Source of the DNA: Pseudodesulfovibrio pelocollis
Lineage (GTDB): Bacteria > Desulfobacterota > Desulfovibrionia > Desulfovibrionales > Desulfovibrionaceae
Length of the DNA stretch: 34,439 bases
Assembly (NCBI RefSeq): GCF_030282845.1
Contig: NZ_JASTWE010000041.1
Coordinates: 1 to 34,439, forward strand
Reading direction: 5' to 3'
In this document: positions 4,371 through 34,432 of the stretch, one piece after another
How positions within the stretch are numbered: position 1 is the stretch's first letter
Layout of the letters: every line of letters starts with the position of its first letter
The notes under the pieces: model-generated
Databases searched by the model: none
Told to the model about the DNA's origin: nothing
The model's input: only the letters and a program-made list of their open reading frames with translations
Made by a program: the position numbers and the translations under genes

Positions 4371-4459
4371 CCTGTCAAGAGGCTTTCCCATACTCCTTTC
4401 GCCTCATTGCGCCCCTGTAGCGCCCGTTCTCCGCCCGGGCCGAAAACCGGGGCTAGACT
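4371..4459 (+). promoter_or_regulatory. Three-box control element A, upstream of the holin gene
   Basis: Box 1 CCTGTCAA (4371-4378), then exactly 42 bases, then box 2 CGCCCGTTCTCC (4421-4432), then 7 bases, then box 3 CCGAAAACCGGGGCTA (4440-4455). The same three boxes with the same spacing occur at 14977-15061 before the small virion protein and at 34344-34428 at the window end. It ends about 50 bases before the holin ATG. Box 3 runs into TAGACT, a possible -10. No consensus -35 is placed for it, so an activator-dependent promoter is the likeliest reading. This is inferred from conservation. Confidence 0.7.
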
Positions 4460-4507
4460 GGTGCCGTGCCCTGGAGGGAGCACAGGAAAACCAAAGGAGA
4501 CAAGACA

Positions 4508-4915
4508 ATGCCCATACCCGTATTCGGCGCCATCGCCGGACTGCTGACCACCGTGGTGGACGGCGTGGCAACACACATGAAGACCAAGCAGGAGCTGAAA
4601 AAGGCGGTCATGGAGAACCGCATGCGCCTGGCCGGGAGCGACCGGGAGTACAACCACGAATGGGAGATGAAGCAGCTGGAGAACGCGGGCTGGAAGGACG
4701 ACGTGCTCTTCTTCGCCTGGATCGGCTTCTTCATCTGGAGCGGGTTTGACCCGGACCGCGCCGGCGAGGTGCTTCAGGCCTGGGAGCGGCTGCCCGAGTG
4801 GTTTTTGCAGATCACCTTCTGGATCGTGGCCGCGGTGCTCGGGGTCAAAAAGATCGGCGACTACCTGCCCGGCGCGGTCAAGGGGCTGCGCGACGCGGCG
4901 AGGAGTGCGCGATGA
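4508..4915 (+). CDS. Phage holin, 3-TM type (GTA holin family)
   Basis: A 135-residue protein with three hydrophobic segments: about 3-20 (IPVFGAIAGLLTTVVDGV), 65-80 and 97-114. A charged helical linker joins the first two. The pattern matches the 'Holin of 3TMs, for gene-transfer release' family (PF11351), found in gene transfer agents and in phages. Holins open the inner membrane so that virions can be released. The ATG at 4508 follows AAAGGAGACAAGACA, a strong ribosome site. It overlaps the next gene by four bases (ATGA). No endolysin gene is visible in the window. Confidence 0.75.
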   Translation: MPIPVFGAIAGLLTTVVDGVATHMKTKQELKKAVMENRMRLAGSDREYNHEWEMKQLENAGWKDDVLFFAWIGFFIWSGFDPDRAGEVLQAWERLPEWFLQITFWIVAAVLGVKKIGDYLPGAVKGLRDAARSAR

Positions 4916-5124
4916 CCGCCCTGGAGCGGGCCGAAGTGCGCGACCTGCTGGCCCGCATCGACGAGCGGGTCAAGGCCATCCAGGAGGACATCCGGGAGAT
5001 CAACCTGTCACGCCGCTGCGCCTCGCACCACGTCAAGATCCGCACCCTGGAGCGCATGGTCTGGGGCTGTCTGGCCGGGCTGGCCGGGCTGGGCGCGCGG
5101 ATGCTGGTGGAGACCCTGCGCTGA
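4912..5124 (+). CDS. XhlA-like coiled-coil membrane protein (lysis accessory)
   Basis: A 70-residue protein. The N-terminal half is a charged heptad-like helix (EVRDLLARIDERVKAIQEDI) and the C-terminal part (about 48-66) is one membrane segment, ending LVETLR. This arrangement resembles haemolysin XhlA-family proteins, which accompany holins in phage lysis cassettes. The ATG overlaps the holin stop by four bases, so the two are translationally coupled. The stop lies only four bases from the convergent TPR gene, leaving no room for a terminator. Short proteins of this shape are hard to assign, so confidence is moderate. Confidence 0.6.
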   Translation: MTALERAEVRDLLARIDERVKAIQEDIREINLSRRCASHHVKIRTLERMVWGCLAGLAGLGARMLVETLR

Positions 5125-5128
5125 GGGG

Positions 5129-6145
5129 CTACGGCGAGGGCGAGGCCGGGGGCTCTTCGGCCTCAGGCGTCTCGTCCGCTGCCGGTTCCGGCGACGGCGC
5201 GGGCGCGGGCTTCGGCTTGGGCGCGACCTTGGGCCTTCCCGCATAGGCCCTGACCTGCTCCTCAAAGGCCTTTGTGGCCTGGGCGTCGCCCTCGGCCCGG
5301 GCCAGCCCGAGGGCGCGGCGGGCCGCGTCGGCGGCTGCGGGATAGTCCCCGCCCCCGGCGCAGGCCTCGGCCAGCAGGGCGTACAGGCCGCTGTCGGTCG
5401 GATTGAGGATCAGGGCGCGCCGGTAGTCGGCCTCGGCCCGGTCAAAGTCGCCAAGGTGCATGGACAGTGCGCCCCGGGCCATGAGCACCGGCAGGGAATG
5501 GGAATCAAGGGACAGGGCCTGGGTCAGATCGTGCAGCGCCTCGTCCTCGTCGCCCAGGGCCAGACGGGCCAGACCGCGATTGTAGTAGGCCTCGAAATGA
5601 GCCGGGTTCAGGGCGATGGCCTTGTCAAAGTCGTGGACCGCGTCGTCGGCCCGACCGAGCCGGGCATAGGCCGTGCCCCGCAGGGCAAAGGCCTCGGCCA
5701 CGGCGTCGTCCCGCCCAAGCACCTGCGAGAACTCGCGCACCGCCTCGGCCCAGGCGTCGCGCCGGTAGAGGATGTAGCCCAGGGTGAACCGGGCCTGGAT
5801 ATGGTCCGGCCGGATGTCAAGGGCATGGCGCGCGTCGGCCTCGGCCGCGTCCAGGTGGCCGCGCTCGAGGTACAGCAGCGCCCGCAGGTGGCGGGCCGTG
5901 ATCTGGTCGGGGTTCAACTCGATGGCCTCGTCGAGGTAGTCCAGGGCCATGTCCTCGTCCAGGTATTCGCCGTTGTGGTGGAGCTGCAGGGCCTTGTCCA
6001 GGGCCGAGGCGGCCATGGCCTCGCGCCGCTGGATCTCCATCTCGCGGTCGGTCAGCCCGGGCCTTGGTTGGCCCGACGAGGTCAGGCAGCCCGGCAGCAC
6101 GAGCAGGAGAAGAACAAGTAAAACAACCGGGCAGGCATGGCGCAT
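5129..6145 (-). CDS. TPR-repeat lipoprotein
   Basis: A 338-residue protein with a lipoprotein signal: basic start, Val/Leu core at 7-17 and lipobox LPGC with the lipidated Cys at 20. Residues from about 60 to 290 form consecutive tetratricopeptide repeats (for example AVREFSQVLGRDDAVAEAFA and AVHDFDKAIALNPAHFEAYY). The tail after about 305 is rich in Pro, Glu and Ala. TPR lipoproteins act as scaffolds in the periplasm or on the outer membrane; the partner is unknown. The gene lies antisense between the lysis pair and the terminase gene, and its 5' end abuts or overlaps the divergent terminase start. Confidence 0.8.
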   Translation of the reverse strand: MRHACPVVLLVLLLLVLPGCLTSSGQPRPGLTDREMEIQRREAMAASALDKALQLHHNGEYLDEDMALDYLDEAIELNPDQITARHLRALLYLERGHLDAAEADARHALDIRPDHIQARFTLGYILYRRDAWAEAVREFSQVLGRDDAVAEAFALRGTAYARLGRADDAVHDFDKAIALNPAHFEAYYNRGLARLALGDEDEALHDLTQALSLDSHSLPVLMARGALSMHLGDFDRAEADYRRALILNPTDSGLYALLAEACAGGGDYPAAADAARRALGLARAEGDAQATKAFEEQVRAYAGRPKVAPKPKPAPAPSPEPAADETPEAEEPPASPSP

Positions 6146-7489
6146 GATCACGAAATACCCGCGCCCGCCCCGCCCGTCAACATGAGGAACCACAACGTGA
6201 CATTGGAACTTTATACGCCAAGACCCCATCAGGCCGAGATCGAGGCCGGATTGGCCCGCTTCTCGGTGCTGGTCTGCCACCGCCGCTTCGGCAAGACCGT
6301 GCTCTCGGTCAACCGGCTCATCCGGGCGGCCAGGGACACGCAGCGCACCGACTGGCGCGGGGCCTACATCGCGCCCCTGTACAAGCAGGCCAAGACCGTG
6401 GTCTGGGACGAACTCAAGCGATACTGCGGCCTGGGGCTTGACGGCTGCACCGTGAAATTCAACGAGACCGAGCTGCGGGCCGACTTTGACAACGGCGCGC
6501 GCATCCGCCTCTTCGGAGCCGAGAACCCGGACTCCCTGCGCGGCATGTATCTCGACGGTGCGGTCTTTGACGAGGTGGCCCAGATGCCCCACCGCGTCTG
6601 GACCGAGGTCATCCGCCCGGCCCTGACAGACCGCATGGGCTGGGCCATGTTCATCGGCACGCCGCGCGGCAAGAACGCCCTTTACCGGCTCTGGCGCGAC
6701 GCCAGGCGCGACCCGGACTGGTTCGCGGCCATGTACCGCGCCTCCCAGACCGGTATCATCCACCCCGACGAACTGGCCGCAGCCGCCCGCGAGATGTCGC
6801 CCGAGGAATACGAGCAGGAGTTTGAGTGTTCGTTCACGGCGGCCATCCGGGGCGCGTACTTCGGCGCCCTGGTGGGCGAGGCGGAAAAGGCCGGGCGCAT
6901 CACTGCGGTGCCCTGCGACCCGGCCCTGCCCGTGCACACCGCCTGGGATCTCGGCATGAGCGATTCCATGGCCATCTGGTTCGTCCAGGCCCGGCCGGGC
7001 AACGCCTACGCGGTCATCGACTACTACGAGGCCAGCGGCGAGGGCCTCGACCACTACGCCCGCATCCTCGACGAGCGCCGCTACGCCTACGGCACCCACA
7101 TCGCGCCCCACGACATCCGGGTGCGCGAGCTGGGCACAGGCAAATCGCGGCTTGAGATCGCCCGCAGCCTGGGCATCCGCTTCGACATCGCGCCGAACAT
7201 CCCCATCCAGGACGGCATCAACGCGGTGCGGACCATGCTGCCCCTGTGCTGGTTCGACGCCACCCGCTGCGCCCCGGGGCTGGAAGCCCTGCGCCACTAC
7301 CGCCGCTCCTTCAACGAGCGCATGGGCGATTTCTCTGCCCGGCCCGTGCACGACTGGACCAGCCACGCGGTGGACGCCTTCCGCTACTTTGCCGTGGGCT
7401 TCCGCCAGCCGGGCACCGGCCAGCGAGCGGCGCGCACCGTCAACGAATACAACCCCTTCGGGAGGCCCCATGAGCGTGCGCGACAGTGA
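6137..7489 (+). CDS. terL: Phage terminase, large subunit
   Basis: Up to 450 residues, the usual length. The ATPase part has a Walker A-like CHRRFGKT at 47-54 and a Walker B AVFDE around 142-146. The nuclease part begins HTAWDLGMSDS (Asp271) and ends with the SHAVDAFRYF motif carrying a further acidic residue. It drives DNA packaging into proheads. Two ATGs are possible, at 6137 and 6182; neither has a good ribosome site. The first would overlap the divergent TPR start. No small subunit is visible beside it. Transcription from element A would have to cross the TPR gene antisense. Confidence 0.9.
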   Translation: MAHDHEIPAPAPPVNMRNHNVTLELYTPRPHQAEIEAGLARFSVLVCHRRFGKTVLSVNRLIRAARDTQRTDWRGAYIAPLYKQAKTVVWDELKRYCGLGLDGCTVKFNETELRADFDNGARIRLFGAENPDSLRGMYLDGAVFDEVAQMPHRVWTEVIRPALTDRMGWAMFIGTPRGKNALYRLWRDARRDPDWFAAMYRASQTGIIHPDELAAAAREMSPEEYEQEFECSFTAAIRGAYFGALVGEAEKAGRITAVPCDPALPVHTAWDLGMSDSMAIWFVQARPGNAYAVIDYYEASGEGLDHYARILDERRYAYGTHIAPHDIRVRELGTGKSRLEIARSLGIRFDIAPNIPIQDGINAVRTMLPLCWFDATRCAPGLEALRHYRRSFNERMGDFSARPVHDWTSHAVDAFRYFAVGFRQPGTGQRAARTVNEYNPFGRPHERARQ

Positions 7490-7844: not shown

Positions 7845-7998
7845 TTGCGGAACATTCCACCATAAGCCAACAATTCCGGCTCATTGCACTGTGAACAAGG
7901 ACATTGCAGCGGGCCGGATTATTCTTGCGGCCGCTTCGGGAAGATGCTACGCGCTATATTAAGAAATAATAAGACCGTTGCGCGCAAGGGGATGTCGC

Positions 7999-10900
7999 AT
8001 GCCTGAAGCCACTCAAATCGGCGTGGTGACCATAGCCTATGGCACCGCCACCGCGGAAGGACCGGACGGAATACGGGACCTGGCTCCCGAAAGCCCGGTC
8101 TTTGTCGATGACATCATCACCACCAAGGGCGGGGCCTCGGCCGTGGAGATCAAGTTCGCCGACGGCGCGATCCTCTCCCAGGGGCCGAACTCCTCGGTGG
8201 TCCTTGACGCCTACGTCTTCAATCCCGAGCAGAGCGCGGGCGAGATGGCCATCAAGCTCGTCCAGGGCACCTTCCGCTCGGTCACGGGCGAGATCGTGGA
8301 CATGAACCCCGAGGGCTTCAGCCTTGAGACCCCGCTGGCCACCATCGGCATCCGGGGCACCACCACCGGCCACAAGATCGTCCCCGGCCAGCCCGAGAGC
8401 CACGTGGTGGTGGACTTTGTGGACAAGCCCGTGATCATCCGGCCCATTTCCGGTGGCCCGGTGGCCATCATCACCCAGGACGGCGGCATGGTCACGGCCA
8501 CCCCGGGCGGCCTGAGCCCGATCTTCATGGCCTCCCAGAACGAGCTGGCCCAGTTCGAGCAGCTCTCGTCCCAGTCGCTGCAACAGACCGCGCCCAGCCC
8601 TGACGACTCCGGCAACCAGGGCGATCAGGACGAGGGCGGCCAGGACCAGTCCGGCTCCCAGGACGGGGACGGCGGACAGGAGCAGGGCCAGGGAGAAGGG
8701 CAGGGCGAGCAGGGCGGCCAGGGACAAGGAGAGGGACAAGGCCAGGGCCAGGATGGCGGCCAGGAAGGAGATCAGGGCGGGGAGCCCGAACAACTGACCC
8801 AGGGCCAGGAACAGGGACCGGGCCAGGGACAAGGGCAAGGCCAGAACCAGGGCGGCGTCTTCAATACCGGCGCTGGCGTTGGCCAGGGCCAGGGGCAAGG
8901 CCAGGGCATGGGTGTCCAGCCGCCCAAACCGGCCGCGCCACCACCGCCTCCGCCTCCGCCGCCACCCCCGGCCCAGACCGGAGGCGCGGCCACCGGCGAC
9001 GAGGGCGACGAAACCCCGCCCGACAACACCCCGGCGCAACCGGCCGTGGTCACCACCCTTGATCTTTCCGGGTGGGATGCTCCCCTGACCGTGAACCTTC
9101 AGGCGTCCCCGCCCTACTATGAAACCACCGGCGACCAGTCCTCGCGCCAGACCCTGAACAGCTCGGGCACCACCACCTACGCCATCCGCACGGTCTTCGG
9201 CAGCGCCCACCACGACAACGACATCACCGGCTCGGCCCAGGGCGACAGCCTCTACGGCGGCATGGGGTACAATACCTTAAGCGGCATGTGCGGCAACGAC
9301 TATCTGGCCGTGGGCCACTACGAGAGCGAGTTCAACTCCTACATGCTCGGCCCCCTGAGCCCGTTCGACATCATCAACGGCGGGGCGGGCACCGACACCC
9401 TGGCCTTTGACGGCACATATGAGGGCGTAACCCTGGATCTGGAGAACGTCACCGGCATCGAGCACATCCAGCTCGGCAGCACCCCGACAGCGCTCATGGG
9501 CCATGACGGGTTGACCGATGCGGCCACCTTCTCCATCGACGCCTCGGGCATCGATCCAGAATATTACCACGGCATCTACTTCGAGTGGGACGGCGTCAGC
9601 ATCGAGAGCTTCAACCAGTTCATCGTCGGCTCGGGCGGCAACGACCTCATCGTCGGCGGCAGCGGGGACGACACCCTGTTCGGCGGCGCGGGTAACGACA
9701 CCCTTTTCGGCACCGGCGGCGACAACATCTTCTTCGGCACCAGCGTCGGCGACGACTCCATGACCGGCGGCAGCGGCAACGACCGCTTCAACATGGGCAC
9801 GCAACTGACCGCGGACGATGTCATCAACGGCGGCGATGGCGACGACTCCCTCTATTTCACAGGCAACACCGAAAACACCAATGCGTTGACCAACGTCACC
9901 AACATCGAACACATCATCCTCGGCAACGCCAGCACGAGCCTCATCTACAGCCCGACCGGAACAGGGACCATCACCATCAACGGCTCGGCCATCACCTCGC
10001 CCAAAACCCTGAACTACAACGGCTCGGGCACAACCCGGGATCAGCACATCATCGGCGGCGCGGGCAACGACACCATCACCGGCGGCACGGGCAACGACAC
10101 CATTCAGGGCGGCGCGGGCGCGGACAACTTGAGCGGCGGCACCGGAGGATTCAACACCCTGTCCTATGCCTCAAGCACGGCAGGGGTGAACATCAACCTG
10201 GCCGCCAACACGGCCTCGGGCGGCCACGCACAGGGCGACACCCTTGCTTTGGGCACCTTCCACGGCGTCATCGGCTCGGCCTACGCCGACAGCCTGACCG
10301 GCTCCGAGAACGCCGAGCGCTTCGAGGGCGGCGCTGGCAACGACCTCATCATCGGCGGCGGCGGCGCAGACACCATCTACGGCGGCGCGGGCAACGACAC
10401 CATCGTCATCTCCACCGAGGTGGCTGAGGAAGCGGAGTATCACGGCGGCACCGGCACCAACACCCTGAGGATCAGCGCCAGTTCCGCGAGCTTCTATGCC
10501 GCAATTGTGACGGGCATCAGCGTGGTTCTCTTCGAGGCAAGCGCCAGCGAGGCCTTTTTCAACTCGGACCAGATGGATTCATGGTCAAAAATCACCACCT
10601 CTGGCGCCCCGGTCTCCATCACCATCGCAGACACCGAGGGCAACGACACCATCGACCTGAGCGCCCTGACCTTCGACAACTGGAATTGGGAGGAAAGCGC
10701 AATCACTGTATCCTCGTCGTATGGTGGCGAAGACCTCGTCAAGGCCTCGGCCGCAAAGGAAATCTTCGAGGGCAGTGACGGCGACCTCACGGTGGATTAC
10801 AGCGCGTCCACAGCGGGCGTGACCGTCAACCTCGCTGACGGCGAAGGCTCGGGCGGCTACGCTGACGGGGATTCGTATTCCTACGTCAAGGCGTTTGTCG

Positions 10901-12849
10901 GCTCGGCACACAACGACACCTTCATCGGGCAGGATGACGCGAACAACTACTTTGAGGGCGGCGCTGGCAACGACCTCTTCATCATGTCCACCTACCTGGA
11001 CGAAAACGACACCATCAGCGGCGGCAGCGGCACCGACACCCTGACCTTCACCTACAACGGCGGCGCGCCGCTGACCAATGTCACCGGCATTGAGCACATC
11101 ATCCTCGGCGACGCGGCGACCACCCTTGTCGGTCACGACGCGTTGGCCGACCCGGGCTCCATCTTCACCCTCGACGCCTCGGGCATCACGGGCGACAGCT
11201 ATAACCTGGAATGGTCCGGGGCTCCCATCTTCAGCTTCAAGCAATACATCATCGGCTCTGACGGCAACGACTCCATCATCGGCGGCCAGGGCAACGACAC
11301 CCTCCTCGGCGGCGACGGCGACGATTCCCTTTATGGCGGCGACGGCAACGACTGCCTCGTGGGCGGCAGCGGCGACAACTGGCTCGAAGGCGGAGCAGGC
11401 AACGACACCCTCATCGGCGGCGACGGACAGGACTGGCTCGAAGGCGGCCCGGGCAACGACCTCATCAACGGCGGCGGCGGAGACGACCCCGTCAGGCGCC
11501 TGTTCGACGTGGCCTCCTACCAGCACGAAGGGTACGCCATCAACGTCAACCTTGAGACGAACCGCGTCACGGGCGGCGACTACACCGACACCCTGGTGGG
11601 CATCAACGCGGTCATGGGCACGGCCCACAACGACACCTTCATCGGCAACGACGCCCCGATCAACGTCTTCTTCTACGGGGGCGGGTCGAACACGGTTGAC
11701 GGCAACTCGGTTCACGACCCGAACGGCGTCACCGGCTTTGACGTGGCCTCCTACCACTATTACCAGACCCCGGGCGACAATATGGGCATCTATGCCTCAA
11801 TGGGGGGCACCAGCGGCTTTGTCACGGACCATGAAATCGAAGGGAACAGGACCTGGACCGACGACCTCTCCAACATCGACATGGTCTGGGGCTCGATCTA
11901 TGACGACACCCTCATCCACTCCGGATCGGACGACTTCGAGTTCATGCCCGGCACGGGCAACGATACCGTGACCGGCAGCGTCAACGGCTGGACCAATGTG
12001 ACCTACTGGGCGCTGGACCAACTCGTCGATGGCGTCGGCATCACCGCCAGCTGGAACAGCGGGCACTGGGAGGTTGAGGGCTCGAACTGGACCGACACCC
12101 TCATCAACGTCAATTCCATCGAGGGCACCGCCGGAAACGATGTCTTCACCGGCGCACCCGGGGTCTTTGTCGAGTTCCGGGGCTGGGCCGGGAACGACAC
12201 CTTCAACGGCAACACCAACGACGGCTTCGTCACCGTGTCCTACGAGGACGACCCGGATGGGGTATACGTCGATCTCTCGACCGAGAACGATTTCGAACAC
12301 GGCTATGCCTACGACGGCTGGGGGGACACCGACACCCTCAACGACATCCGGAACGTTACAGGCTCGGACTTCAACGACACCCTCAAGGGCAACGAGTTTG
12401 GCAACCTGCTGGTGGGCAACGACGGCGACGATGTCCTCTTCGGCAGCAGCGGCGAGAACACCCTGATCGGCGGCGAAGGCTGCGACACCTTCGTCTACGA
12501 GAGCTTCGGGGGGGGTATGGATATCATCGCGGACTTTGACAAGAACTTCGACAAGATCGGCCTGCACCCGATGGCTTTCTCCGAGTACCTTGATGGCGAA
12601 GGCAAGCTCCTAGAGGAGTACTTTGTTTTCGACGATGCAGAATCCGGCCCAGATTGGAACTATTATTCTGAAGAACTAGAATACACCGGTTTCATCTATG
12701 CCAGCCAGACGGACAGCAGTGTCGGCAATCTCTACTTTTTCGAAGGCGGAGAGCACTTCCTCATGGCCACCATCACCGAATACGACGATGGCGTCCCGGG
12801 TGACAACAACCTGACCGCCGACTCCTTTGTCGAATACATCATGGCCTAG
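7999..12849 (+). CDS. Giant FecR-domain RTX protein (type I secreted adhesin-like)
   Basis: A 1616-residue protein. Residues about 45-150 are a FecR domain (IKLVQGTFRSVTGEIVDMNP, TPLATIGIRGTT). About 195-325 is a Gln/Gly-rich tract followed by a long proline run. About 395-1500 holds many calcium-binding RTX nonapeptides of the GGxGNDTL type, with repeated blocks such as NVTGIEHIILGDA. The end (TFVYESFGGGMDIIADFDKN onward) resembles RTX C-termini that carry the type I secretion signal. Such proteins act as large surface adhesins, for example in Desulfovibrio biofilms. No ABC transporter, membrane-fusion or TolC gene is in the window. The ATG at 7999 follows AAGGGGA. Confidence 0.85.
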   Translation: MPEATQIGVVTIAYGTATAEGPDGIRDLAPESPVFVDDIITTKGGASAVEIKFADGAILSQGPNSSVVLDAYVFNPEQSAGEMAIKLVQGTFRSVTGEIVDMNPEGFSLETPLATIGIRGTTTGHKIVPGQPESHVVVDFVDKPVIIRPISGGPVAIITQDGGMVTATPGGLSPIFMASQNELAQFEQLSSQSLQQTAPSPDDSGNQGDQDEGGQDQSGSQDGDGGQEQGQGEGQGEQGGQGQGEGQGQGQDGGQEGDQGGEPEQLTQGQEQGPGQGQGQGQNQGGVFNTGAGVGQGQGQGQGMGVQPPKPAAPPPPPPPPPPPAQTGGAATGDEGDETPPDNTPAQPAVVTTLDLSGWDAPLTVNLQASPPYYETTGDQSSRQTLNSSGTTTYAIRTVFGSAHHDNDITGSAQGDSLYGGMGYNTLSGMCGNDYLAVGHYESEFNSYMLGPLSPFDIINGGAGTDTLAFDGTYEGVTLDLENVTGIEHIQLGSTPTALMGHDGLTDAATFSIDASGIDPEYYHGIYFEWDGVSIESFNQFIVGSGGNDLIVGGSGDDTLFGGAGNDTLFGTGGDNIFFGTSVGDDSMTGGSGNDRFNMGTQLTADDVINGGDGDDSLYFTGNTENTNALTNVTNIEHIILGNASTSLIYSPTGTGTITINGSAITSPKTLNYNGSGTTRDQHIIGGAGNDTITGGTGNDTIQGGAGADNLSGGTGGFNTLSYASSTAGVNINLAANTASGGHAQGDTLALGTFHGVIGSAYADSLTGSENAERFEGGAGNDLIIGGGGADTIYGGAGNDTIVISTEVAEEAEYHGGTGTNTLRISASSASFYAAIVTGISVVLFEASASEAFFNSDQMDSWSKITTSGAPVSITIADTEGNDTIDLSALTFDNWNWEESAITVSSSYGGEDLVKASAAKEIFEGSDGDLTVDYSASTAGVTVNLADGEGSGGYADGDSYSYVKAFVGSAHNDTFIGQDDANNYFEGGAGNDLFIMSTYLDENDTISGGSGTDTLTFTYNGGAPLTNVTGIEHIILGDAATTLVGHDALADPGSIFTLDASGITGDSYNLEWSGAPIFSFKQYIIGSDGNDSIIGGQGNDTLLGGDGDDSLYGGDGNDCLVGGSGDNWLEGGAGNDTLIGGDGQDWLEGGPGNDLINGGGGDDPVRRLFDVASYQHEGYAINVNLETNRVTGGDYTDTLVGINAVMGTAHNDTFIGNDAPINVFFYGGGSNTVDGNSVHDPNGVTGFDVASYHYYQTPGDNMGIYASMGGTSGFVTDHEIEGNRTWTDDLSNIDMVWGSIYDDTLIHSGSDDFEFMPGTGNDTVTGSVNGWTNVTYWALDQLVDGVGITASWNSGHWEVEGSNWTDTLINVNSIEGTAGNDVFTGAPGVFVEFRGWAGNDTFNGNTNDGFVTVSYEDDPDGVYVDLSTENDFEHGYAYDGWGDTDTLNDIRNVTGSDFNDTLKGNEFGNLLVGNDGDDVLFGSSGENTLIGGEGCDTFVYESFGGGMDIIADFDKNFDKIGLHPMAFSEYLDGEGKLLEEYFVFDDAESGPDWNYYSEELEYTGFIYASQTDSSVGNLYFFEGGEHFLMATITEYDDGVPGDNNLTADSFVEYIMA

Positions 12850-12874
12850 CCCCGGCCCATCGCACATCCGACAC

Positions 12875-12913
12875 GGCGCGCCCGTCCATCATGGACGGGC
12901 GCGCCTCTTTTTG
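12875..12913 (+). terminator. Strong intrinsic terminator of the RTX gene
   Basis: A perfect 13-bp stem (12875-12887 with 12893-12905), a five-base loop ATCAT, then TCTTTTTG. It stands between the convergent RTX and glycine-rich genes. On the minus strand no T-run follows it, so it is an efficient terminator only for the plus strand. Confidence 0.92.
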
Positions 12914-12945
12914 TCTCTCGCGGGCAGGGTCAGGCGTTGCCCAAA

Positions 12946-14814
12946 TCAGGCGTTGCCGACAAAAAGGCTGCCGCCGGAGCGCTCCGGGGCCTGGATGACC
13001 TGGGTCAGGTGAATGGTGGTCGAGTTGTCGAAGGTGTAGACCGGCTCCTGCGTGGTGGACAGGCTGACGCTTCTGTCGTCCACCATGTTGACCACCGAGT
13101 TGTCCTGGTCCACGAAGCGGTTTTCCACGTTGCGCACAAAGTCCTGGGAGTTGTCCACCACCACCTGCCGCGTCTCGGGATAGGCCACGGTCATCTCCCG
13201 GTTCTCGATGAAGCTGGTCTGGTGGCGGGTCTCCTGGATGTTGACCGAGTTGTCCACCTCGGTGACGTTGGTGCGGTTCTCCGTATGCTCGGTGCGCGAG
13301 TTGTCCGCGCTGATGGACACGGTGTTGTCGTTGTGGACGGTCGTGTCCCGCGATTCGACGTACGTGGTCGAGTCGCGCTCGGTGACGCTGTTGTCGATGT
13401 GGTTCTCCTGGCGGTTGTCCACGCTCCGGTTCTCCACGTTGACCGTGGACTGGTTGGTCACCTGCTCCACGCTCGTGGAGTTGTCCACGCTCCGCTCCGA
13501 GCTGAAGTCCTGGCTGTTGGCTGTGCTGGTGTCGTAGGAATTCTGGTTGAGGGTGGTGTCCGAGCGGTGGACCGCCGCGTTCATGGACATGTCGAAGAGC
13601 GCGTCCACGGTCTCGCTGTTGTTCACCTCGTGGTAGCGCTCGATGTTCTGGGTCTGGTCCACGTTCATGGAATAGGACGAGGACATGTCCACGGCCGTGG
13701 GGCGGCCCGCCTGATCGTCGAAATCGAGCTTGGGCAGGCCCAGGGGCTCGGCATAGCCGTCTGCCGTGGGTATCCACGGGGCCTGGAGGGTCTGCTTTGG
13801 CTGGAAGCCGTAGGAGTGGACCGTGTGCTGGAACACGTCGCTTGGCCAGTTCTGGGTATGGCCGAAATACATGCCGTGGGGATTGGTCATCCGAAACGCC
13901 TGGACATGCCCGGCGGGTGTCGAAGGCACCACCCCGACCATGCTCGGCATGGAAAAGCCGATCTGTGGCGCTATGGGCACGAACCCGGCAGGGGATATGG
14001 GCTGGATGCCAAGGGACGGGGCAATGGGCACATGGCCGCCCATCGACACAGAGCCCGAGCCGCCCGGCTGCACCGACCCGCCGCCACCGCCGCCCGCCGA
14101 GCCTCCGCCCGTGCTGGGCGCGACAGGTGTCCTGCCCGACTCGGTGGAGATGGGCACACTGGCCCCGCCGGACACGCTGCCGCCCCCCGTGGTGCCGGGG
14201 CTGACAGTGCCGGAGCCGCCGCCCGTGGTGCCCGAGCTGCCGCCGCCCGTGGCCTGACCCACGGCGTGGCCGCCGGTGTTGTCGCGGGCCGAGTCGCCCC
14301 CGCCGCCACCGCCACCGCCGCCACCGCCGCCACCGCCGATTTGGACCGCGCCAGTGTTGATGGCTCCTGCGCCGCCACCGCCGCCGCCAGTGCCGCCGCC
14401 ACTGCCGATGTGGGCCGCGCCTACGCCGCCACCCACGGCCGCACCGCCGCCACCGCCGCCACCGCCGCCCTGACCGATCATGCCGACCATTCCGGCGCCC
14501 GGGCCACCCGGGCCGGCAACACCGGGACTCCCGGCCACACCGCCGCCACCCACAAAGCCGCCCGCGCCGGACATCGCCCCATGCATCAACCCCGGGTGGG
14601 CCGCATAGGGAATCCTGGCTGGGGTAGTGTCGATGGGAACGCGAGCCGGAGTGGTGTCGATGGGAACGTGGGCCGGAGTGGTGTCGATGGGCACATGTCC
14701 AGGCTCGCCGGTCACCACGCGACCGGCCTCGCTGGCCATGAACGATCCGGCCGGTCCCGCCGTCACCTGCCCGGGAGGCCCGGCCACGATGAAGTCGGTC
14801 ACGCTGGTTGACAC
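12946..14814 (-). CDS. Glycine-rich, fibre-like repetitive protein
   Basis: A 622-residue protein of unrecognised family, starting at GTG (14814) after GGGAG. Residues 1-70 include three copies of a nine-residue VPIDTTPAR-type repeat. About 85-250 is mostly glycine, with poly-Gly runs of ten or more. The last 230 residues are Asn/Asp/Ser-rich, with recurring VDNS, VENR and HNDN units alternating with hydrophobic residues, suggesting a beta-solenoid or trimeric fibre. There is no signal peptide or membrane segment. It is encoded against the flanking phage genes and has its own promoter. A virion fibre, spike or surface protein is plausible but unproven. Confidence 0.7.
   Translation of the reverse strand: MSTSVTDFIVAGPPGQVTAGPAGSFMASEAGRVVTGEPGHVPIDTTPAHVPIDTTPARVPIDTTPARIPYAAHPGLMHGAMSGAGGFVGGGGVAGSPGVAGPGGPGAGMVGMIGQGGGGGGGGGAAVGGGVGAAHIGSGGGTGGGGGGAGAINTGAVQIGGGGGGGGGGGGGGDSARDNTGGHAVGQATGGGSSGTTGGGSGTVSPGTTGGGSVSGGASVPISTESGRTPVAPSTGGGSAGGGGGGSVQPGGSGSVSMGGHVPIAPSLGIQPISPAGFVPIAPQIGFSMPSMVGVVPSTPAGHVQAFRMTNPHGMYFGHTQNWPSDVFQHTVHSYGFQPKQTLQAPWIPTADGYAEPLGLPKLDFDDQAGRPTAVDMSSSYSMNVDQTQNIERYHEVNNSETVDALFDMSMNAAVHRSDTTLNQNSYDTSTANSQDFSSERSVDNSTSVEQVTNQSTVNVENRSVDNRQENHIDNSVTERDSTTYVESRDTTVHNDNTVSISADNSRTEHTENRTNVTEVDNSVNIQETRHQTSFIENREMTVAYPETRQVVVDNSQDFVRNVENRFVDQDNSVVNMVDDRSVSLSTTQEPVYTFDNSTTIHLTQVIQAPERSGGSLFVGNA
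14627..14707 (-). repeat. Three tandem 27-bp units in the glycine-rich gene
   Basis: Units at 14627-14653, 14654-14680 and 14681-14707, the first two nearly identical and the third diverged at its end. Each encodes a nine-residue VPIDTTPA(R/H)-type motif. The count may vary between strains by slippage. Confidence 0.8.
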
Positions 14815-14888
14815 TGTCCGTCTCCCTGCCAAAGCGCACCGTCCCTGGTTCGCGCAGCGGCCCGAAAAGGGCTTTTTGGCATATACAC

Positions 14889-14916
14889 AATATACGCCCC
14901 GGACCTGACCCGTCAA
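14889..14916 (-). promoter_or_regulatory. Sigma-70 promoter of the glycine-rich gene
   Basis: On the minus strand TTGACG (14911-14916) and TATATT (14889-14894) are separated by 16 bases, a near-consensus vegetative promoter about 75 bases upstream of the GTG start at 14814. It is divergent from element B. Confidence 0.75.
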
Positions 14917-14976
14917 GAGGCATCGCCGCAGGACGATCACCGCCTCCTGCCCCTGTCCGCGGCCCCTCCCGAATAC

Positions 14977-15095: not shown

Positions 15096-15389
15096 ATGGG
15101 AGGAAGCCCGGCACTCATCACCTCGGTCTTCAGCAGCGTGGTCGGCGCCCTCGGCTCGGGCCAGCAACGGCAATCCGGATCGGACCGGTCCGCCGAACTG
15201 GCGGCCGAACGCGCCCGCCAGGAAGAGGAACAGCGGCTCAAGGAGGCCCGCGAGCGCAAACGCGAGCGCGAAAAACTGCTCGAGGCCAGGACCGTGGACC
15301 AGAAGCGGCTGGCCCAGGCCACGGCCGGGGCAGCGTCGGACGACGATGCTGCCGCCACCGGCACGCTCAAAACCAAGCTGGGGGAATAG
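15096..15389 (+). CDS. Small phage protein upstream of portal
   Basis: A 97-residue protein starting MGGSPALITSVFSSVVGALG, with a very charged middle helix (about 35-65, rich in Arg, Glu and Lys) and ending TLKTKLGE. Small proteins with a glycine/hydrophobic start and a 'T-L-x-x-x-L-G' end commonly precede the portal gene in T7-like and BPP-1-like podophages; their role in the virion is poorly known. AGGAGG precedes the ATG. It is the first gene after element B and sits two bases before the portal start, so the two form an operon. Confidence 0.65.
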   Translation: MGGSPALITSVFSSVVGALGSGQQRQSGSDRSAELAAERARQEEEQRLKEARERKREREKLLEARTVDQKRLAQATAGAASDDDAAATGTLKTKLGE

Positions 15390-15390
15390 C

Positions 15391-17175
15391 ATGCACGCCA
15401 CGGAACTCGCCCGCTCGCTCAAGGCCCGGTTCGCCGGGCTGGAGGAGGCCCGCCGCCCCTGGCTCGCCTCCTGGCACGAGCTGACCGATTACATGCTGCC
15501 CCGCAAGAACAGCTTCGCCGGGGCCGACCCGCTGGTCACCCGGGGTCGCGTGGGAGACGAGCGCATCTTCGACTCCACGCCCAGCCACGCCCTGGACCTG
15601 CTCGCCTCGTCGCTGGGCGGGCTGTTGACAAACCCGGCCATGCCCTGGTTCGACATCCGCGCCCGCGACCCGGCTCAGGGCGACGCGGCCGGGGTGCGCA
15701 CCTTCCTGCAACAGGTCCGCGACCGCATGATCGCGCTCTTCAACACCGAGGATACGGGATTCCAGACCAATGCCCACGAACTGTACCTGGACGTGGTCCT
15801 GCTGGGCACGGCGGTCATGTACGTGGAGGCGGACCCGGACACGGTGGTCAGCTTCCGCACCCGGCCCCTGGGCGAGGTCTTTGCGGCCGAGTCGGTGCGC
15901 GGCTCGGTGGACACGGTCTACCGCCGCTACACCCTCACGGCCCGGCAGGCGGCCCGCGAATGGGGCGCGGCCTGCTCGGACGCCACCCGGCGCAAGGCCG
16001 AGGAGCGGCCGGACGAGAGGGTGGATATCCTGCACGCCGTGTTCCCGCGCACAGACCGCGATCCCTATGCCCTGGGCGCGGCCCACTTCCCCTGGGCCAG
16101 CGTCTATGTGGAGACCGGCGCGGACCATGTGCTGGAGGAATCCGGCTACCTGGAGATGCCCTACCTCGTGCCCCGCTGGGCCAAGGCGGCCGGTGAGACA
16201 TACGGACGCGGGCCGGGCCAGACCGCCCTCTCCGACACCCGGGTGCTCAACGCCATGGCCCGCACCGCGCTCATGGCCGCGGAGAAGATGTCCGACCCGC
16301 CGCTGATGGTGCCTGACGACGGGTTCCTCGGGCCGGTCCACTCCGGGCCGGGCGGGCTCTCCTACTACCGGGCGGGCAGCCCGGACCGCATCGAGGCCCT
16401 GCCCGTGACCGTGGACCTGGCCGCCACCGAGCGGATGATGGAGCAGCGCCGCCAGTCCATCCGGCGCATCTTCATGGGCGACCAGCTCGCGCCGGACGGC
16501 CCGGCCGTGACCGCCACCGAGGCGGTCATCCGCCAGAGCGAGCGGATGCGCGTGCTCGGCCCGGTGCTGGGCAGGCTCCAGGCCGAGTTCCTCAGCCCCC
16601 TCATCCGCCGCGTATTCCGCATCATGCTCCGGGCGGGCGCGCTGCCCCCCTTCCCCGAGGGATTCGGCCCGGACGACATCGAGGTGCGCTACACCTCGCC
16701 CGTGGCCCGCGCCCAGAAGGAGTTCGAGGCCCGGGGACTGGCCCGGACCATGGAATACCTGGCCCCGCTGGTGGGAAGCGCCGATCCCTTCGGGATCATG
16801 GACAACTTCGCCACCGACCGGGCCGCCCGGCACGTGGCCGAGCTGTTCGGCACCCCGCCCGATTACCTGCGGCCCGAGGCCGAGGTGGCCGAGGCGCGCG
16901 CCCACAAGGGCCAGGCCGCCGAGATGGCGCGCATGACCCAGATGGCCGCCCAGGCGGCAGAAATGGCCCGCGTCCTGGCCGAGGCGCACACCGACAGGCC
17001 CAGCGTGCTGACCGACCTGTGGTCCCTGCTGGCCGCCCGGTTCGGCGGCGGCGCGCCCCCCGGTCCCCGGGCCGGCGAAGCCTGTCGGGAAACACCGGAC
17101 AACGGACCCGGCCACGCGCCCGAGGCCGCGATCCATCCGGTCCCGGACGACAGGGAGGTCAGCCATGCCGGTTAG
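15391..17175 (+). CDS. Phage head-to-tail connector / portal protein
   Basis: A 594-residue protein of the head-tail connecting (T7-type portal, PF12236) family. Signatures are WLASWHELTDYMLPRKNSF near 27, RIFDSTPSHALDLLASSLGG near 60, LLGTAVMYVE near 138, the ETYGRGPGQTALSDTRVLNA segment near 268, and a mid-region MMEQRRQSIRRIFMGDQL. It forms the dodecameric ring at one vertex of the head through which DNA passes. The C-terminal 90 residues are Ala-rich helices and a Pro/Gly-rich tail. It overlaps the next gene by 11 bases. No lesion is visible. Confidence 0.92.
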   Translation: MHATELARSLKARFAGLEEARRPWLASWHELTDYMLPRKNSFAGADPLVTRGRVGDERIFDSTPSHALDLLASSLGGLLTNPAMPWFDIRARDPAQGDAAGVRTFLQQVRDRMIALFNTEDTGFQTNAHELYLDVVLLGTAVMYVEADPDTVVSFRTRPLGEVFAAESVRGSVDTVYRRYTLTARQAAREWGAACSDATRRKAEERPDERVDILHAVFPRTDRDPYALGAAHFPWASVYVETGADHVLEESGYLEMPYLVPRWAKAAGETYGRGPGQTALSDTRVLNAMARTALMAAEKMSDPPLMVPDDGFLGPVHSGPGGLSYYRAGSPDRIEALPVTVDLAATERMMEQRRQSIRRIFMGDQLAPDGPAVTATEAVIRQSERMRVLGPVLGRLQAEFLSPLIRRVFRIMLRAGALPPFPEGFGPDDIEVRYTSPVARAQKEFEARGLARTMEYLAPLVGSADPFGIMDNFATDRAARHVAELFGTPPDYLRPEAEVAEARAHKGQAAEMARMTQMAAQAAEMARVLAEAHTDRPSVLTDLWSLLAARFGGGAPPGPRAGEACRETPDNGPGHAPEAAIHPVPDDREVSHAG

Positions 17176-17395
17176 TCCGCTGGAACTCCATCGCGCCTAC
17201 CGGCGGCTCTTCGAGTCCGCTGACGGCCGGGCGGTCATGGAGGACCTGGAGCGGCGCGGCTCGTTCATGCGCTCTACCTTCTCCACCGACCCCGGACGGG
17301 CCGCCTTTGACGAAGGCCGCCGGTCCCTGGTGCTGCACGTCAAGCACATGCTTGACCAAACCAACTTCATCAACCTCAAGGAGATCACCCAATGA
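17165..17395 (+). CDS. Bbp19-like phage protein
   Basis: A 76-residue protein (LHRAYRRLFESADGRAVMED, then FDEGRRSLVLHVKHML) resembling the small Bbp19-type protein that sits between portal and scaffold genes in Bordetella phage BPP-1-like podophages. The 'E-G-R-R-S-x-V-L' string is the characteristic part. Its function is not established. The start overlaps the portal end (preceded by GGGAGGTCAGCC) and the stop overlaps the scaffold start by four bases, so translation is coupled on both sides. Confidence 0.65.
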   Translation: MPVSPLELHRAYRRLFESADGRAVMEDLERRGSFMRSTFSTDPGRAAFDEGRRSLVLHVKHMLDQTNFINLKEITQ

Positions 17396-18231
17396 CCACG
17401 ACCAAGGAAACCAACGACTGGCGGGCCACCCTGCCCGAGGAATGGACCGTGCGCCTGACCGGCGAGGACGGCGAGGAGCGGGAAATACCCCTGCGCGAGC
17501 ACCCGGCCCTGGCCCGCTACGAGAGCAAGGACGAGGCGGTCAAGGCCCTGGTCCACGCCCAGAAGCTGCTGGGCAGGACGCCCGAGGGCTACATCCGCCT
17601 GCCCGGGCCTGACGCCAGCGAGGAGCAGGTGGCCGCCTTTCACGCCGCCCTGGGGCGGCCCGAGAGCCCGGACGGCTACACCCTGCCCGAACTGGATTTG
17701 CCCGAGGAGCTTGAGCTGCGCGAGGAGCTGCTCTCGGGCCTCAGGGCCAAGGCCCACGAGCTGGGCCTGACCGCGACCCAGGCGGCCGGGCTGTACGCGT
17801 GGTTCCTGCCCCTGGTGCTGGACGCCCACCACTGCCTGCGCGACGAGGCCCAGCGGCTGCGCGACAGCGAGCTGGAATCCCTGCGCGCCGTGCACCGGGG
17901 CGAGACCCCGCGCCTGCTCGACAACGCCCTGCGCGCGGCCGAGGCCATCGGCGGCGGCGACCTGCTCGACGCCCTGACCCGCACCGGCGCGGGCGACCGG
18001 GCCGCTGTCATCAGCGCCTTTGCCAAGATCGCGCCCCTGGTGCTCGAAAGCGGCCTGCGCGGCGCGCCCTCGGGCTGGGGCGAGGAACTGAGCCGCGACA
18101 CGCTGCGCGAGATGATGCAGGACCCGCGCTACCACGACCCGTCCCGCCGCGACGATACCTACGTGGCCAAGGTCCGCAAGGGCTTCGAGGCCCTGTACCC
18201 CGGCAACTACATCCCCGGCGGCCAGATCTAG
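17392..18231 (+). CDS. Phage scaffolding / capsid assembly protein
   Basis: A 279-residue, acidic, mostly helical protein. Its N-terminal part has the pattern common in podophage scaffolds: WRATLPEEW, KYxSKDEAVKALVHAQKLLG-like, YIRLPGPDASEEQVAAFHAA, LGRPESPDGYTLPELDLPEE. The C-terminal half has helices and a short basic end (VAKVRKGFEALYPGNYIPGG), suited to binding the inner capsid surface. Scaffolds guide prohead assembly and then leave. Position directly before the expected capsid gene supports the call. The ATG overlaps the previous stop. Confidence 0.75.
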   Translation: MTTTKETNDWRATLPEEWTVRLTGEDGEEREIPLREHPALARYESKDEAVKALVHAQKLLGRTPEGYIRLPGPDASEEQVAAFHAALGRPESPDGYTLPELDLPEELELREELLSGLRAKAHELGLTATQAAGLYAWFLPLVLDAHHCLRDEAQRLRDSELESLRAVHRGETPRLLDNALRAAEAIGGGDLLDALTRTGAGDRAAVISAFAKIAPLVLESGLRGAPSGWGEELSRDTLREMMQDPRYHDPSRRDDTYVAKVRKGFEALYPGNYIPGGQI

Positions 18232-30198: not shown

Positions 30199-30200
30199 TC

Positions 30201-33305: not shown

Positions 33306-33780
33306 CCGCGTGACCATCTACACCGACGGCTCCTGCCTGGGCAATCCCGGCCCGGGCGGCTATGGCGCGGTCCTCATCCACGGCGAATACAAGGGCATGA
33401 ACGCCGACAACTACAAGGAATTCTCCCAGGGCTACCGCGATACCACCAACAACCGCATGGAGCTTCGGGCCGTCATCGTCGGTCTCTCGGCCCTGACCCG
33501 CCCCTGCGCCGTGGACCTGTGGACCGACTCCAAATACGTGCAGGAGGCCATCACCAAGAACTGGATAGGCAACTGGCAGCGCAACGGCTGGAAAACCGCA
33601 GCCAAAAAGCCGGTCAAGAACCAGGACCTCTGGCAGCAGCTCCTCCCGCTCATCAAGCAGCACGATGTCACCTTCCACTGGGTCAAGGGCCACAGCGGCC
33701 ACCTGCTCAACGAACGCTGCGACGTCCTGGCCCGCACCGCCGCCGCCGGCCCGAACCTGCTGGACGACACGGCCCCATAG
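33298..33780 (+). CDS. rnhA: Ribonuclease HI
   Basis: A 160-residue enzyme that removes the RNA strand of RNA-DNA hybrids. All catalytic residues are present: Asp10 (YTDGSC), Glu55 (NNRMELRA), Asp77 (WTDSKYV), His132 (VKGHSGH) and Asp142 (ERCDVLAR). The basic region [20 protein letters not shown] binds the hybrid. The start is GTG at 33298, with AAGGAG ten bases before. The end lies 50 bases before the next small membrane protein. Confidence 0.95.
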
Positions 33781-33829
33781 GCTCAGGCCTATATTTGACA
33801 TCCGCACCAGCCTGCCGCACAGTCGCCGG

Positions 33830-34297
33830 ATGTTGCCCGGAAGCGGAACCATTGGCAAAATCGCCCAGTTCTCCCTGCGTTTGCTCCTGGGCGCGGGCCT
33901 CGCCGCGCAGGCCGCCTATGTTGGATTCTATTTCTTTGGAATAACATTTATTTTTCTGCTCGACACCCTGTCTCTCAGCTTCGCCTATTGGCACACTATG
34001 CCTTGGCTGCTTTACGGTGCTCTGGGATTGTTTGTCATTGGCAGCATCCACCTACTGGCGCGGCTTTTCCGCCAAGGGCCGGAAAAATTCCGCAAGCGGC
34101 GGCTGGACGCCCTGGCCAGCCTCGCCTGCATCGCGCTGCCGGGCTGGGTCAACGGTTCCCTGGCCCTTGAGGGAAATCTGACCCTTGAGAGCCACCTGTT
34201 TTATGCCTGGTTCACCGGCTTCAACCTCCTCGTCCTCTGCCTGATCGCTATCCCCCGCGCCCACGGGTATGTCTTCGGGTTGGGCGGGCGTGAATAA
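33830..34297 (+). CDS. Hypothetical membrane protein
   Basis: A 155-residue protein with about four hydrophobic segments (roughly 12-45, 50-70, 88-105 and 118-140) and a basic loop (RLFRQGPEKFRKRRLD near 80). No family is recognised. The start is uncertain because no clear ribosome site precedes the ATG at 33830. Base use is less GC-rich than in its neighbours around 33910-34040, a common trait of membrane segments. It is probably transcribed with rnhA. Confidence 0.55.
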   Translation: MLPGSGTIGKIAQFSLRLLLGAGLAAQAAYVGFYFFGITFIFLLDTLSLSFAYWHTMPWLLYGALGLFVIGSIHLLARLFRQGPEKFRKRRLDALASLACIALPGWVNGSLALEGNLTLESHLFYAWFTGFNLLVLCLIAIPRAHGYVFGLGGRE

Positions 34298-34343
34298 CTG
34301 GACCTGCCGACGCGAAAGCGTCACGTCGATGTTTTCGGCAAAC

Positions 34344-34432
34344 CCTGTCAAGCGGACTTCTTAGCCCTTTGCACCCCTTTCCTGCCCTGCTCGCGCCCGT
34401 TTTCCGTTCCTCTCCAAAACCCGTGTTATCCA
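34344..34432 (+). promoter_or_regulatory. Three-box control element C, at the window end
   Basis: CCTGTCAA (34344-34351), 42 bases, CGCCCGTTTTCC (34394-34405), then TCCAAAACCCGTGTTA (34413-34428), which matches box 3 of element A at 10 of 16 positions with no gap. The spacing is the same as in A and B, and TATCCA follows at the -10 position. The gene it controls lies beyond the window; by analogy a phage-type module is expected. Confidence 0.6.

What the first reader, a model, noticed from the sequence alone, without database searches (positions are those of the whole stretch)
4371..34432. Three copies of a fixed-spacing, 85-base control element in front of phage-type modules
Seen: CCTGTCAA-N42-C(G/A)CCCGTT(C/T)TCC-N7-CCGAAA(A/T)CCGGGGCTA at 4371, 14977 and (less exact in the last box) 34344. 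The gaps are identical in all three. The first two lie 30-50 bases ahead of the holin and portal-operon starts. No host gene in the window has it. Inference: an activator-dependent promoter that switches on separated virion modules together. I know of no described element of this form, but could not search.
Basis: partly seen in the sequence, partly recalled or inferred. Interest (0 to 1): 0.85.

Follow-up and report, generated by a model that had tools for sequence, protein, structure and literature searches.

The report
Scattered phage-particle genes sharing one promoter
A fixed-geometry promoter that seems to be inherited from a bacterial virus sits before the scattered genes of a phage-like particle and several toxin-like proteins in a group of sulphate-reducing bacteria, and probably switches them on together.

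Summary
The host genus is Pseudodesulfovibrio, judged by titles of relatives. A profile of the element finds 8 strong copies in this genome and matches in 36 of 36 congeneric genomes. Of 127 examined copies with downstream DNA, 123 precede particle genes (capsid, portal, tails, holin-like, tail lysozymes) or short Rhs and MuF-like genes with variable ends; 4 are unassigned. GTCAA lies 79-81 bp before a TAnnnT -10 hexamer in 114 of 129 copies and one helical turn closer in 9.

Five prophages of the same lineage have the same layout, GTCAA 80-82 bp before a -10, at the head of the late operon, close behind a gene for a small winged-helix protein. A diverged homologue of that protein exists in 34 of 36 genomes, beside DUF5675 and a divergent S24-type repressor.

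Best reading: a phage late promoter, copied to each piece of a split-up virion gene set; a domesticated, gene-transfer-agent-like regulon that also makes toxin-like cargo. Promoter activity, protein binding, particles and DNA transfer are untested.

The parts
4371..4455 (+). element copy 1 (GTCAA at 4374, CGCCCGTT at 4421, AAAACC box, -10-like TAGACT at 4454-4459)
   Evidence: R1 73 bits, E 4e-20 for the whole genome
14977..15061 (+). element copy 2 (GTCAA 14980, CGCCCGTT 15006, CACCCGTT 15027, -10-like TATGGT 15060-15065)
   Evidence: R1 79 bits, E 4.5e-22
34344..34428 (+). element copy 3 (GTCAA 34347, CGCCCGTT 34394; no full TAnnnT); its gene lies beyond the contig end, in relatives a MuF-like gene
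   Evidence: R1 52 bits, E 1e-13; relatives L056 and G003
4508..4915 (+).
   Evidence: homologues follow the element in 11 examined copies
4912..5124 (+). 70-aa partner of the previous gene, kept in the prophages
6137..7489 (+). terminase large subunit (true start may lie about 16-19 codons further in); no element of its own
   Evidence: PF03237, phrog_2 and phrog_2472; 34 of 36 genus genomes; no R1 match nearby
15096..15389 (+). 97-aa protein before the portal gene, first gene of module 2
15346..17175 (+). portal / head-tail connector
   Evidence: PF12236 E 3e-155, phrog_332
17165..17395 (+). 76-aa protein of the portal operon, kept in prophages
17392..18231 (+). scaffold- or protease-like head gene
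   Evidence: phrog_3742, phrog_458; PF05396 only below cut-off
5129..6148 (-). TPR-type lipoprotein gene, antisense between the holin-like pair and terminase; the same arrangement in L111
   Evidence: reading frame and repeats by eye; start approximate

Best explanation
The element is an RNA-polymerase promoter with a sigma70-type -10 hexamer (TAnnnT) and no -35 box, which needs an activator. It descends from the late promoter of a temperate short-tailed phage. In that phage lineage the late promoter stands at the head of the late operon, close behind the gene of a small winged-helix-turn-helix protein; I take that protein to be the late activator. In Pseudodesulfovibrio and some related genera the virion operon has been split into pieces scattered between host genes, and each piece carries its own copy of the promoter, so one activator can still switch on capsid, portal, tail, lysis and other genes together. 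The same promoter also stands before several copies per genome of short Rhs proteins, MuF-like proteins and tail-lysozyme-type proteins with interchangeable ends, probably particle cargo. Upstream, a divergent repressor with an S24 (LexA/CI-type) domain probably holds down the DUF5675-activator operon. Shown by sequence: element, geometry, genes behind it, prophage layout, conservation of regulator locus. Inferred: promoter activity, which protein binds which box, repression, particles, cargo loading, DNA transfer.
For: 8 strong copies in the own genome, matches in 36 of 36 genus genomes; exact-pattern scan 78 matches in 25 genus genomes against 4 for the reversed pattern. Genes behind: 123 of 127 virion or cargo. 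59 of 60 copies found by the profile keep GTCAA, 58 of 60 a -10. GTCAA to TAnnnT 79-81 bp in 114 of 129, 69-71 bp in 9. MCP loci from named records: element 60-260 nt upstream on the coding strand in 20 of 21 loci with at least 67% identity, the 21st being cut off, and in 0 of 6 alphaproteobacterial loci. Five prophages: GTCAA 80, 82, 82, 81, 82 bp before TAcacT-like hexamers ahead of the late operon. Activator candidate: homologue in 34 of 36 genomes, profile-profile 98%, PF12728 HTH_17 above cut-off in one of three tested, model with pLDDT 86 of the winged-HTH type; beside DUF5675 in 19 of 19 loci. Outside the genus element and activator co-occur: 14 both, 5 element only, 10 activator only, 188 neither of 217; all 10 genomes with 4 or more elements have it. 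Virion genes kept: MCP 35 of 36, terminase 34 of 36; dN/dS 0.09-0.34 for four genes.
Against: No transcript, footprint or particle was seen. G043 has elements and MCP but no activator match; G008 (82% complete) has none either. G020 lacks MCP and terminase but keeps elements and activator. Ten genomes outside the genus have the activator without a profile match. Prophage promoters match only the first half of the profile, in 3 of 5. The prophage 88-aa protein has no Pfam hit; the model of the genus-type protein alone was poor (pLDDT 53); no structural match reached E 0.001. The exact pattern is absent from IMG/VR. Co-occurrence is not corrected for kinship.
Confidence: 0.66

Rival explanations
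1. The element is a loading site for a Q- or AlpA-type antiterminator: the promoter itself works without help, and the small protein binds the box just upstream of the -10 and lets polymerase pass terminators further down.
For: In P. aeruginosa an S24-type repressor AlpR controls AlpA, whose binding element lies between -35 and -10 (passages of PMC7969949 and PMC9371919); here the conserved AAAACCGGGG box lies directly before the -10. Module 1 would have to be read through about 1 kb of antisense TPR gene to reach the terminase gene.
Against: Leaders from the predicted start to the ATG are 21-62 nt in 21 of 25 folded copies, with room for no terminator in the shortest; only the four MCP leaders are about 140 nt. 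Without any -35 box an unaided promoter is unlikely. The candidate is 68-85 aa, whereas AlpA's DNA-contacting residues are numbered 128-142 behind an N-terminal ring. Conserved boxes reach 92 bp upstream, further than a loading site needs.
Confidence: 0.15
2. The particle is a weapon rather than a gene-transfer agent: a phage-derived particle that carries Rhs-, MuF- and lysozyme-type effectors into competitors, DNA packaging being secondary.
For: 64 of 123 assigned copies precede variable-ended families (Rhs 34, lysozyme-type 20, MuF-like 10). All 20 Rhs proteins scanned match the YD-shell; lysozyme-type ends match VgrG3-like C in 4, CHAP in 3 and phage lysozyme in 2 of 14; one MuF-like protein ends in Ntox44. 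MuF toxins are known from temperate phages (listing and start of abstract of PMC5576092).
Against: Terminase and portal are kept under purifying selection or in nearly all genomes, which a protein-only device would not need. Loading of these proteins into particles is unproven, and the lysozyme-type proteins could simply be ordinary ejection proteins.
Confidence: 0.25
3. An old prophage has merely been broken up by rearrangement; the copies are remnants of an active phage's late promoter under the control of resident prophages, with no host function.
For: Complete-looking relatives sit as prophages in five genus genomes, including this one. In G000 one Rhs copy and an additional half element on C11 are remnants; G003's third-module gene is broken.
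Against: MCP in 35 and terminase in 34 of 36 genomes, open frames, dN/dS 0.09-0.34; copies persist with one promoter each; only 5 genomes were seen to hold a prophage of this kind by the MCP search, yet all 36 have elements.
Confidence: 0.1
4. The element is a mobile repeat or a binding site of a global host regulator.
For: Up to 25 profile matches per genome.
Against: The copies are oriented towards, and 20-240 nt before, a narrow set of gene families, flanks differ, and the same place before MCP is kept across genera.
Confidence: 0.03

Closest known systems
CcGTA of Caulobacter crescentus (RogA - GafYZ - GTA promoter)
   Same: A LexA-like S24-domain repressor holds down a small activator operon; the activator acts on the main cluster and several distant loci (passages of PMC9632790, and PMC11150451). 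RogA lacks the key catalytic residues, as 7 of 12 full-length repressors here seem to by eye.
   Different: CcGTA structural genes lie mainly in one cluster; here each piece has its own promoter copy. The activator is an HTH_17-type protein of about 75 aa beside DUF5675, the virion genes are of short-tailed phage type, and no common 85-bp element is described in the passages seen.
AlpR - AlpA - alpBCDE of Pseudomonas aeruginosa
   Same: S24-type repressor, small positive regulator, lysis genes, binding box next to the -10.
   Different: AlpA is an antiterminator with an N-terminal ring; the present protein is too short for that, and the element extends to about -92.
Late promoters of temperate phages with a dedicated activator
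   Same: Five prophages of this lineage have the same geometry at the head of the late operon.
   Different: A phage has one late promoter here; the genus has 2-25 profile matches per genome, before scattered modules.
Dd1, the GTA of Desulfovibrio desulfuricans
   Same: A GTA in the same order (passages of PMC11841831 and PMC6854486).
   Different: Its predicted small terminase gene Ddes_0720 sits directly upstream of the large one; I did not compare its genes with the present ones.
Pelagibacter podoviruses (HTVC010P group) and Vibrio podoviruses
   Same: Closest named phages by capsid and portal, 34-44% identity; one unannotated human-gut phage fragment reaches 55% for the capsid.
   Different: Ordinary compact phage genomes.
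MuF polymorphic toxins of temperate phages
   Same: Cys-rich module followed by variable ends; the name is my recall plus listing and abstract start of PMC5576092.
   Different: No MuF Pfam match was obtained for the one member scanned (only Ntox44); stand-alone genes under a shared promoter.

Membership tests
gene transfer agent | phage-type virion genes including terminase, portal, capsid, tail | tested here: met
gene transfer agent | long-term vertical inheritance with the host | tested here: met
   35 and 34 of 36 genomes; rank correlation of identity with host RlmN 0.51 for MCP (32 genomes) and 0.50 for terminase (30 genomes), modest and not corrected for kinship
gene transfer agent | virion genes not linked to integrase and replication genes | tested here: inconclusive
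   no such gene was noticed beside the modules in the gene lists of the window and G003, but the neighbours were not all scanned against family libraries
gene transfer agent | packages random host DNA and transfers it | not testable with these tools
   needs particles
temperate phage late promoter | stands before the late operon of a phage of the same lineage, same geometry | tested here: met
   5 of 5 prophages, 80-82 bp from GTCAA to -10; the full profile does not match them
AlpA-type antiterminator system | regulator with N-terminal ring and C-terminal HTH | tested here: not met
   68-85 aa with the HTH/wing in the first 60 residues; AlpA size from passages of PMC9371919
AlpA-type antiterminator system | S24-type repressor controlling the regulator gene | tested here: inconclusive
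   divergent S24-domain gene present; repression not testable
GafA / GafYZ activators | sequence homology to GafA, GafY or GafZ | not tested
   no Gaf sequence was compared
HTH_17 (PF12728) DNA-binding proteins | profile score at or above 27 bits | tested here: inconclusive
   28.8 bits for G010's protein, 22.7 and 19.7 for two others; none for two prophage proteins
S24-domain (LexA/CI-like) repressors | Peptidase_S24 score at or above 23.3 bits | tested here: inconclusive
   25.0 bits in G000, 18.1 in G002, none in G009

The most novel reading that the evidence does not exclude
A domesticated short-tailed phage whose single late promoter was multiplied to at least eight places in this genome, so that a phage switch (S24 repressor, DUF5675, winged-HTH activator) now governs a dispersed regulon that makes a phage-like particle together with a changing arsenal of Rhs-, MuF- and lysozyme-type effectors: a gene-transfer agent or particle that may deliver toxins as well as, or instead of, DNA, spread through at least three genera of the family.
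Probability: 0.4. Interest if true: 0.95.

Novelty: new variant of a known kind. Interest (0 to 1): 0.85.

Why it matters
Gene-transfer agents are hard to recognise, and most known ones are single clusters. A promoter signature that marks every piece of a scattered virion gene set gives a way to find such systems, to list all their parts, including unsuspected cargo, and to name a regulator to delete. The prophages in the same genus let one compare the phage promoter with its multiplied descendant directly, so how a phage operon becomes a host regulon can be tested. If the variable Rhs-, MuF- and lysozyme-type proteins travel in the particle, GTA-like particles and interbacterial toxin delivery would be linked.

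Tried and rejected
Sigma54, FliA and ECF promoter types were set aside by inspection of the consensus (no GG-N10-GC, no FliA or ECF boxes; consensus forms recalled). An IHF site for the GTCAA box was set aside by eye: the recalled consensus WATCAA-N4-TTR does not fit the spacing. The prophage 72-aa HTH_17 gene as activator: outside the three prophages its profile A3 gives only weak generic matches (best 6e-6, many genomes). A terminator in the leader: not seen in short leaders. Element upstream of terminase or of the DUF5675-activator operon: none. Strict pattern in IMG/VR: 0. First structure model, of the genus-type protein alone, was too poor to use; the combined alignment gave pLDDT 86. A dN/dS value for host RlmN was not obtained because the script stopped. 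CI-like gene near the modules in G003 (C3:248535) was looked at and had no counterpart in the other regions compared. Not in print, as far as searched: 'gene transfer agent' with Pseudodesulfovibrio 0 papers; other listings showed none with this element or system; subscription journals and preprints are not in the library. Papers: passages only of PMC11841831, PMC12724379, PMC9662315, PMC11150451, PMC9371919, PMC7969949, PMC6854486, PMC9632790; all others by listing or start of abstract only.

Rows dropped before counts: of 78 genus pattern matches, 9 were not fetched (G003:C6, G011:C23, G019:C79 and C83, G013, two of G015, two of G021; mostly two-mismatch rows unlike the consensus, two at contig ends); one fetched row (G005:C109) was missed by my script's fixed GTC; one element is counted twice (L091/L092), so 123 of 127 is 122 of 126 distinct. 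The 60 profile matches were chosen by me from the capped list (E at most 5.6e-9, plus G000:C50 at 2.6e-8). G005:L067-type variant: L067 was left out of alignment A1 by choice (65 of 66 offered).
Full report
OBSERVATION. The two-box pattern occurs three times in the window against 0.01 expected. In the own genome (3.43 Mb, 138 contigs; the window is contig C41) the pattern with up to 3 mismatches gives nine places, of which seven look like the element; two three-mismatch places do not. In 25 genomes of the genus a shorter form with up to 2 mismatches gives 78 matches against 4 for the reversed pattern; in 16 genomes of other genera of the order 1 against 4. The host genus follows from titles of near relatives, mostly Pseudodesulfovibrio; the window's own record is unnamed.

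ANATOMY. I aligned 65 copies and profiled them. Numbered from the predicted start (7 bases behind the hexamer, an assumption) the boxes lie near -92 (GTCAA), -66 and -43 (CGCCCGTTTTC, 21 bp apart), -23 to -14 (AAAACCGGGG) and -12 to -7 (hexamer). A sigma70 scan finds no -35/-10 pair at the element. The distance from GTCAA to the hexamer is 79-81 bp in 114 of 129 rows, 69-71 bp in 9, 77 in 1; 4 rows had no hexamer in the search range and 1 no GTCAA. The short class, mainly in G023 and G009, has lost one helical turn. This phasing suggests proteins bound on one face of the helix (inference).

GENES BEHIND THE ELEMENT. A sequence-only covariance model R1 finds 8 strong copies in the own genome: C41 (three), C50 (two), C23, C40 and C11. 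At E up to 0.01 all 36 genus genomes have 2-25 matches. I fetched 129 rows, 69 by pattern and 60 by profile. Two lack downstream DNA; 123 of the other 127 have, on the coding strand within 900 bases, a homologue of: Rhs 34, lysozyme-type 20, tail protein phrog_376 14, capsid 13, holin-like 11, pre-portal/portal 11, TTA-like 10, MuF-like 10. Four are unassigned (L090, L095, L097, L214); L097 begins like a cut-off Rhs protein. One element is counted twice. In named records the element stands 60-260 nt before the capsid gene in 20 of 21 loci at 67% identity or more, among them Pseudodesulfovibrio, Salidesulfovibrio, Humidesulfovibrio and Desulfocurvus titles (some are weak, E up to 0.016; the 21st locus, L112, is cut off), and not before the six alphaproteobacterial relatives.

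DISPERSAL. In this genome terminase, portal, capsid and tails lie on different contigs; in G003 they lie on one contig over about 70 kb between host genes. In locus L111, a Desulfovibrio-titled metagenome, holin-like gene, terminase, capsid, portal and scaffold are still close together in 9 kb, with one weak element before the capsid gene and a partial one before the holin-like gene. In Pseudodesulfovibrio capsid and portal pieces are apart and each has its own copy. So promoter copies seem to accompany the splitting of the operon (inference). Virion genes are kept: capsid in 35 and terminase in 34 of 36 genomes (G020 lacks both, G008 the terminase); G047's terminase match and five second capsids at 39-62% belong to other phage copies as far as I can tell. 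dN/dS between G000 and G003 is 0.09 (capsid), 0.18 (tail), 0.29 (portal), 0.34 (scaffold). Capsid and terminase identities follow host RlmN only moderately (rank correlation 0.51 and 0.50).

PHAGE ORIGIN. Five genus genomes, this one included (contig C49), carry compact prophage regions with the same virion genes in phage order. At the head of their late operons stands GTCAATAGG(A/T)AAT, with a TAcacT-like hexamer 80, 82, 82, 81 and 82 bp behind GTCAA. R1 itself matches only the first half, in three of the five. In four of five the GTCAA box starts 8-17 bases behind the stop codon of an 88-aa gene, in G009 about 400 bases behind it (coordinates). In four of five a terminator-like hairpin lies between GTCAA and the hexamer (by eye).

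REGULATOR. A profile of the 88-aa protein finds, besides the five prophage copies, a diverged homologue at E 3e-10 or better in 34 of 36 genus genomes, not in G043 and G008 (three further matches near E 1e-3). All are about 68-85 aa; G051's copy has a stop in the matched frame. Profile-profile comparison gives 98%. Pfam HTH_17 passes its cut-off in one of three tested. A model of the prophage protein with 17 aligned sequences has pLDDT 86 and resembles RacA, excisionases and MerR-type winged helices, though no match is below E 0.05 by much (best 0.049). MerR-type proteins bind promoter spacers (recalled), where AAAACCGGGG lies. In 19 of 19 fetched loci the gene lies directly behind a DUF5675 gene; DUF5675 also precedes it in four of five prophages. 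A divergent gene starts about 160 bases upstream; my start pattern recovered it in 13 of 19, and in the other six the same reversed frame is visible by eye. It reads as an XRE-like N-terminus plus S24 domain (25.0 bits in G000, below cut-off in G002, none in G009). In G001 it stops after 59 codons and in G041 my reading gave 213 aa. Of 12 copies longer than 200 aa, 5 keep the lysine I take for catalytic and 7 have arginine (by eye; the dyad is recalled). The intergenic stretch is conserved, with GTTGACT-N5-6-ATAGTCA and AATGTCTAAAG, fitting a repressor-operated promoter pair (inference). No element stands before this operon.

CO-OCCURRENCE. In 247 genomes drawn from the order, R1 matches (E up to 1e-3) occur in 49 and the activator (E up to 1e-5) in 53, each in 11 of 51 genera. 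Outside the genus 14 of 217 have both, 5 the element only (single weak matches), 10 the activator only, 188 neither; Fisher p 4.7e-12, kinship not corrected. All 10 genomes with four or more elements have the activator. Element-led genes in two such genera were again MuF-like, Rhs, capsid, holin-like, portal and tail genes where assigned.

CARGO. The Rhs proteins (20 of 20 with the YD-shell) end in different sequences behind the DPLG border. The lysozyme-type family shares about 220 N-terminal residues and ends in VgrG3-like C (4), CHAP (3) or phage lysozyme (2) domains of 14 scanned. MuF-like proteins share a Cys-rich first part, one with Ntox44. That they ride in the particle is inference from shared promoter and phage context.

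VERDICT. Its circuit works like the RogA-GafYZ control of CcGTA (passages) and like AlpR-AlpA (passages), but it is filed under neither: Gaf homology was not tested and the AlpA architecture is not met.

Noticed in passing
L313:19074-19820 and the S24 repressors of 11 other loci: The residue I take for the catalytic lysine is arginine in 7 of 12 copies longer than 200 aa, so self-cleavage may have been lost in several species; G001's copy stops after 59 codons.
   Followed up: partly
window 7978-14940: An RTX-repeat adhesin-like gene and a large minus-strand gene sit between the two virion modules of the window; G003 has the same neighbours.
   Followed up: no
window 5129-6148 minus; L111:6349-6978 minus: A TPR-type gene lies antisense between the holin-like pair and the terminase gene in two distant loci, so the arrangement is old and may matter.
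   Followed up: no
L247-L256 (prophage regions): In 4 of 5 prophages a terminator-like hairpin lies inside the late promoter, between GTCAA and the -10; the GTA-type element keeps an imperfect inverted repeat there.
   Followed up: partly
Rhs leaders, e.g. L061, L070, L072: A short hairpin (TTCCCGG...CCGGGAA type) directly behind the predicted start recurs in Rhs leaders of several genomes.
   Followed up: no
G020: This species has no capsid or terminase match but keeps elements, the TTA-like gene, DUF5675 and the activator: perhaps a system in decay or with replaced head genes.
   Followed up: no
L013:5073 onwards and L313:7013-7066: In this genome the Rhs copies on C11 look like remnants: one 78-aa start and one half element with a short Rhs match.
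   Followed up: no
L090, L095, L097, L214: Four elements without an assigned gene; L095 precedes a 170-aa secreted-looking protein.
   Followed up: partly
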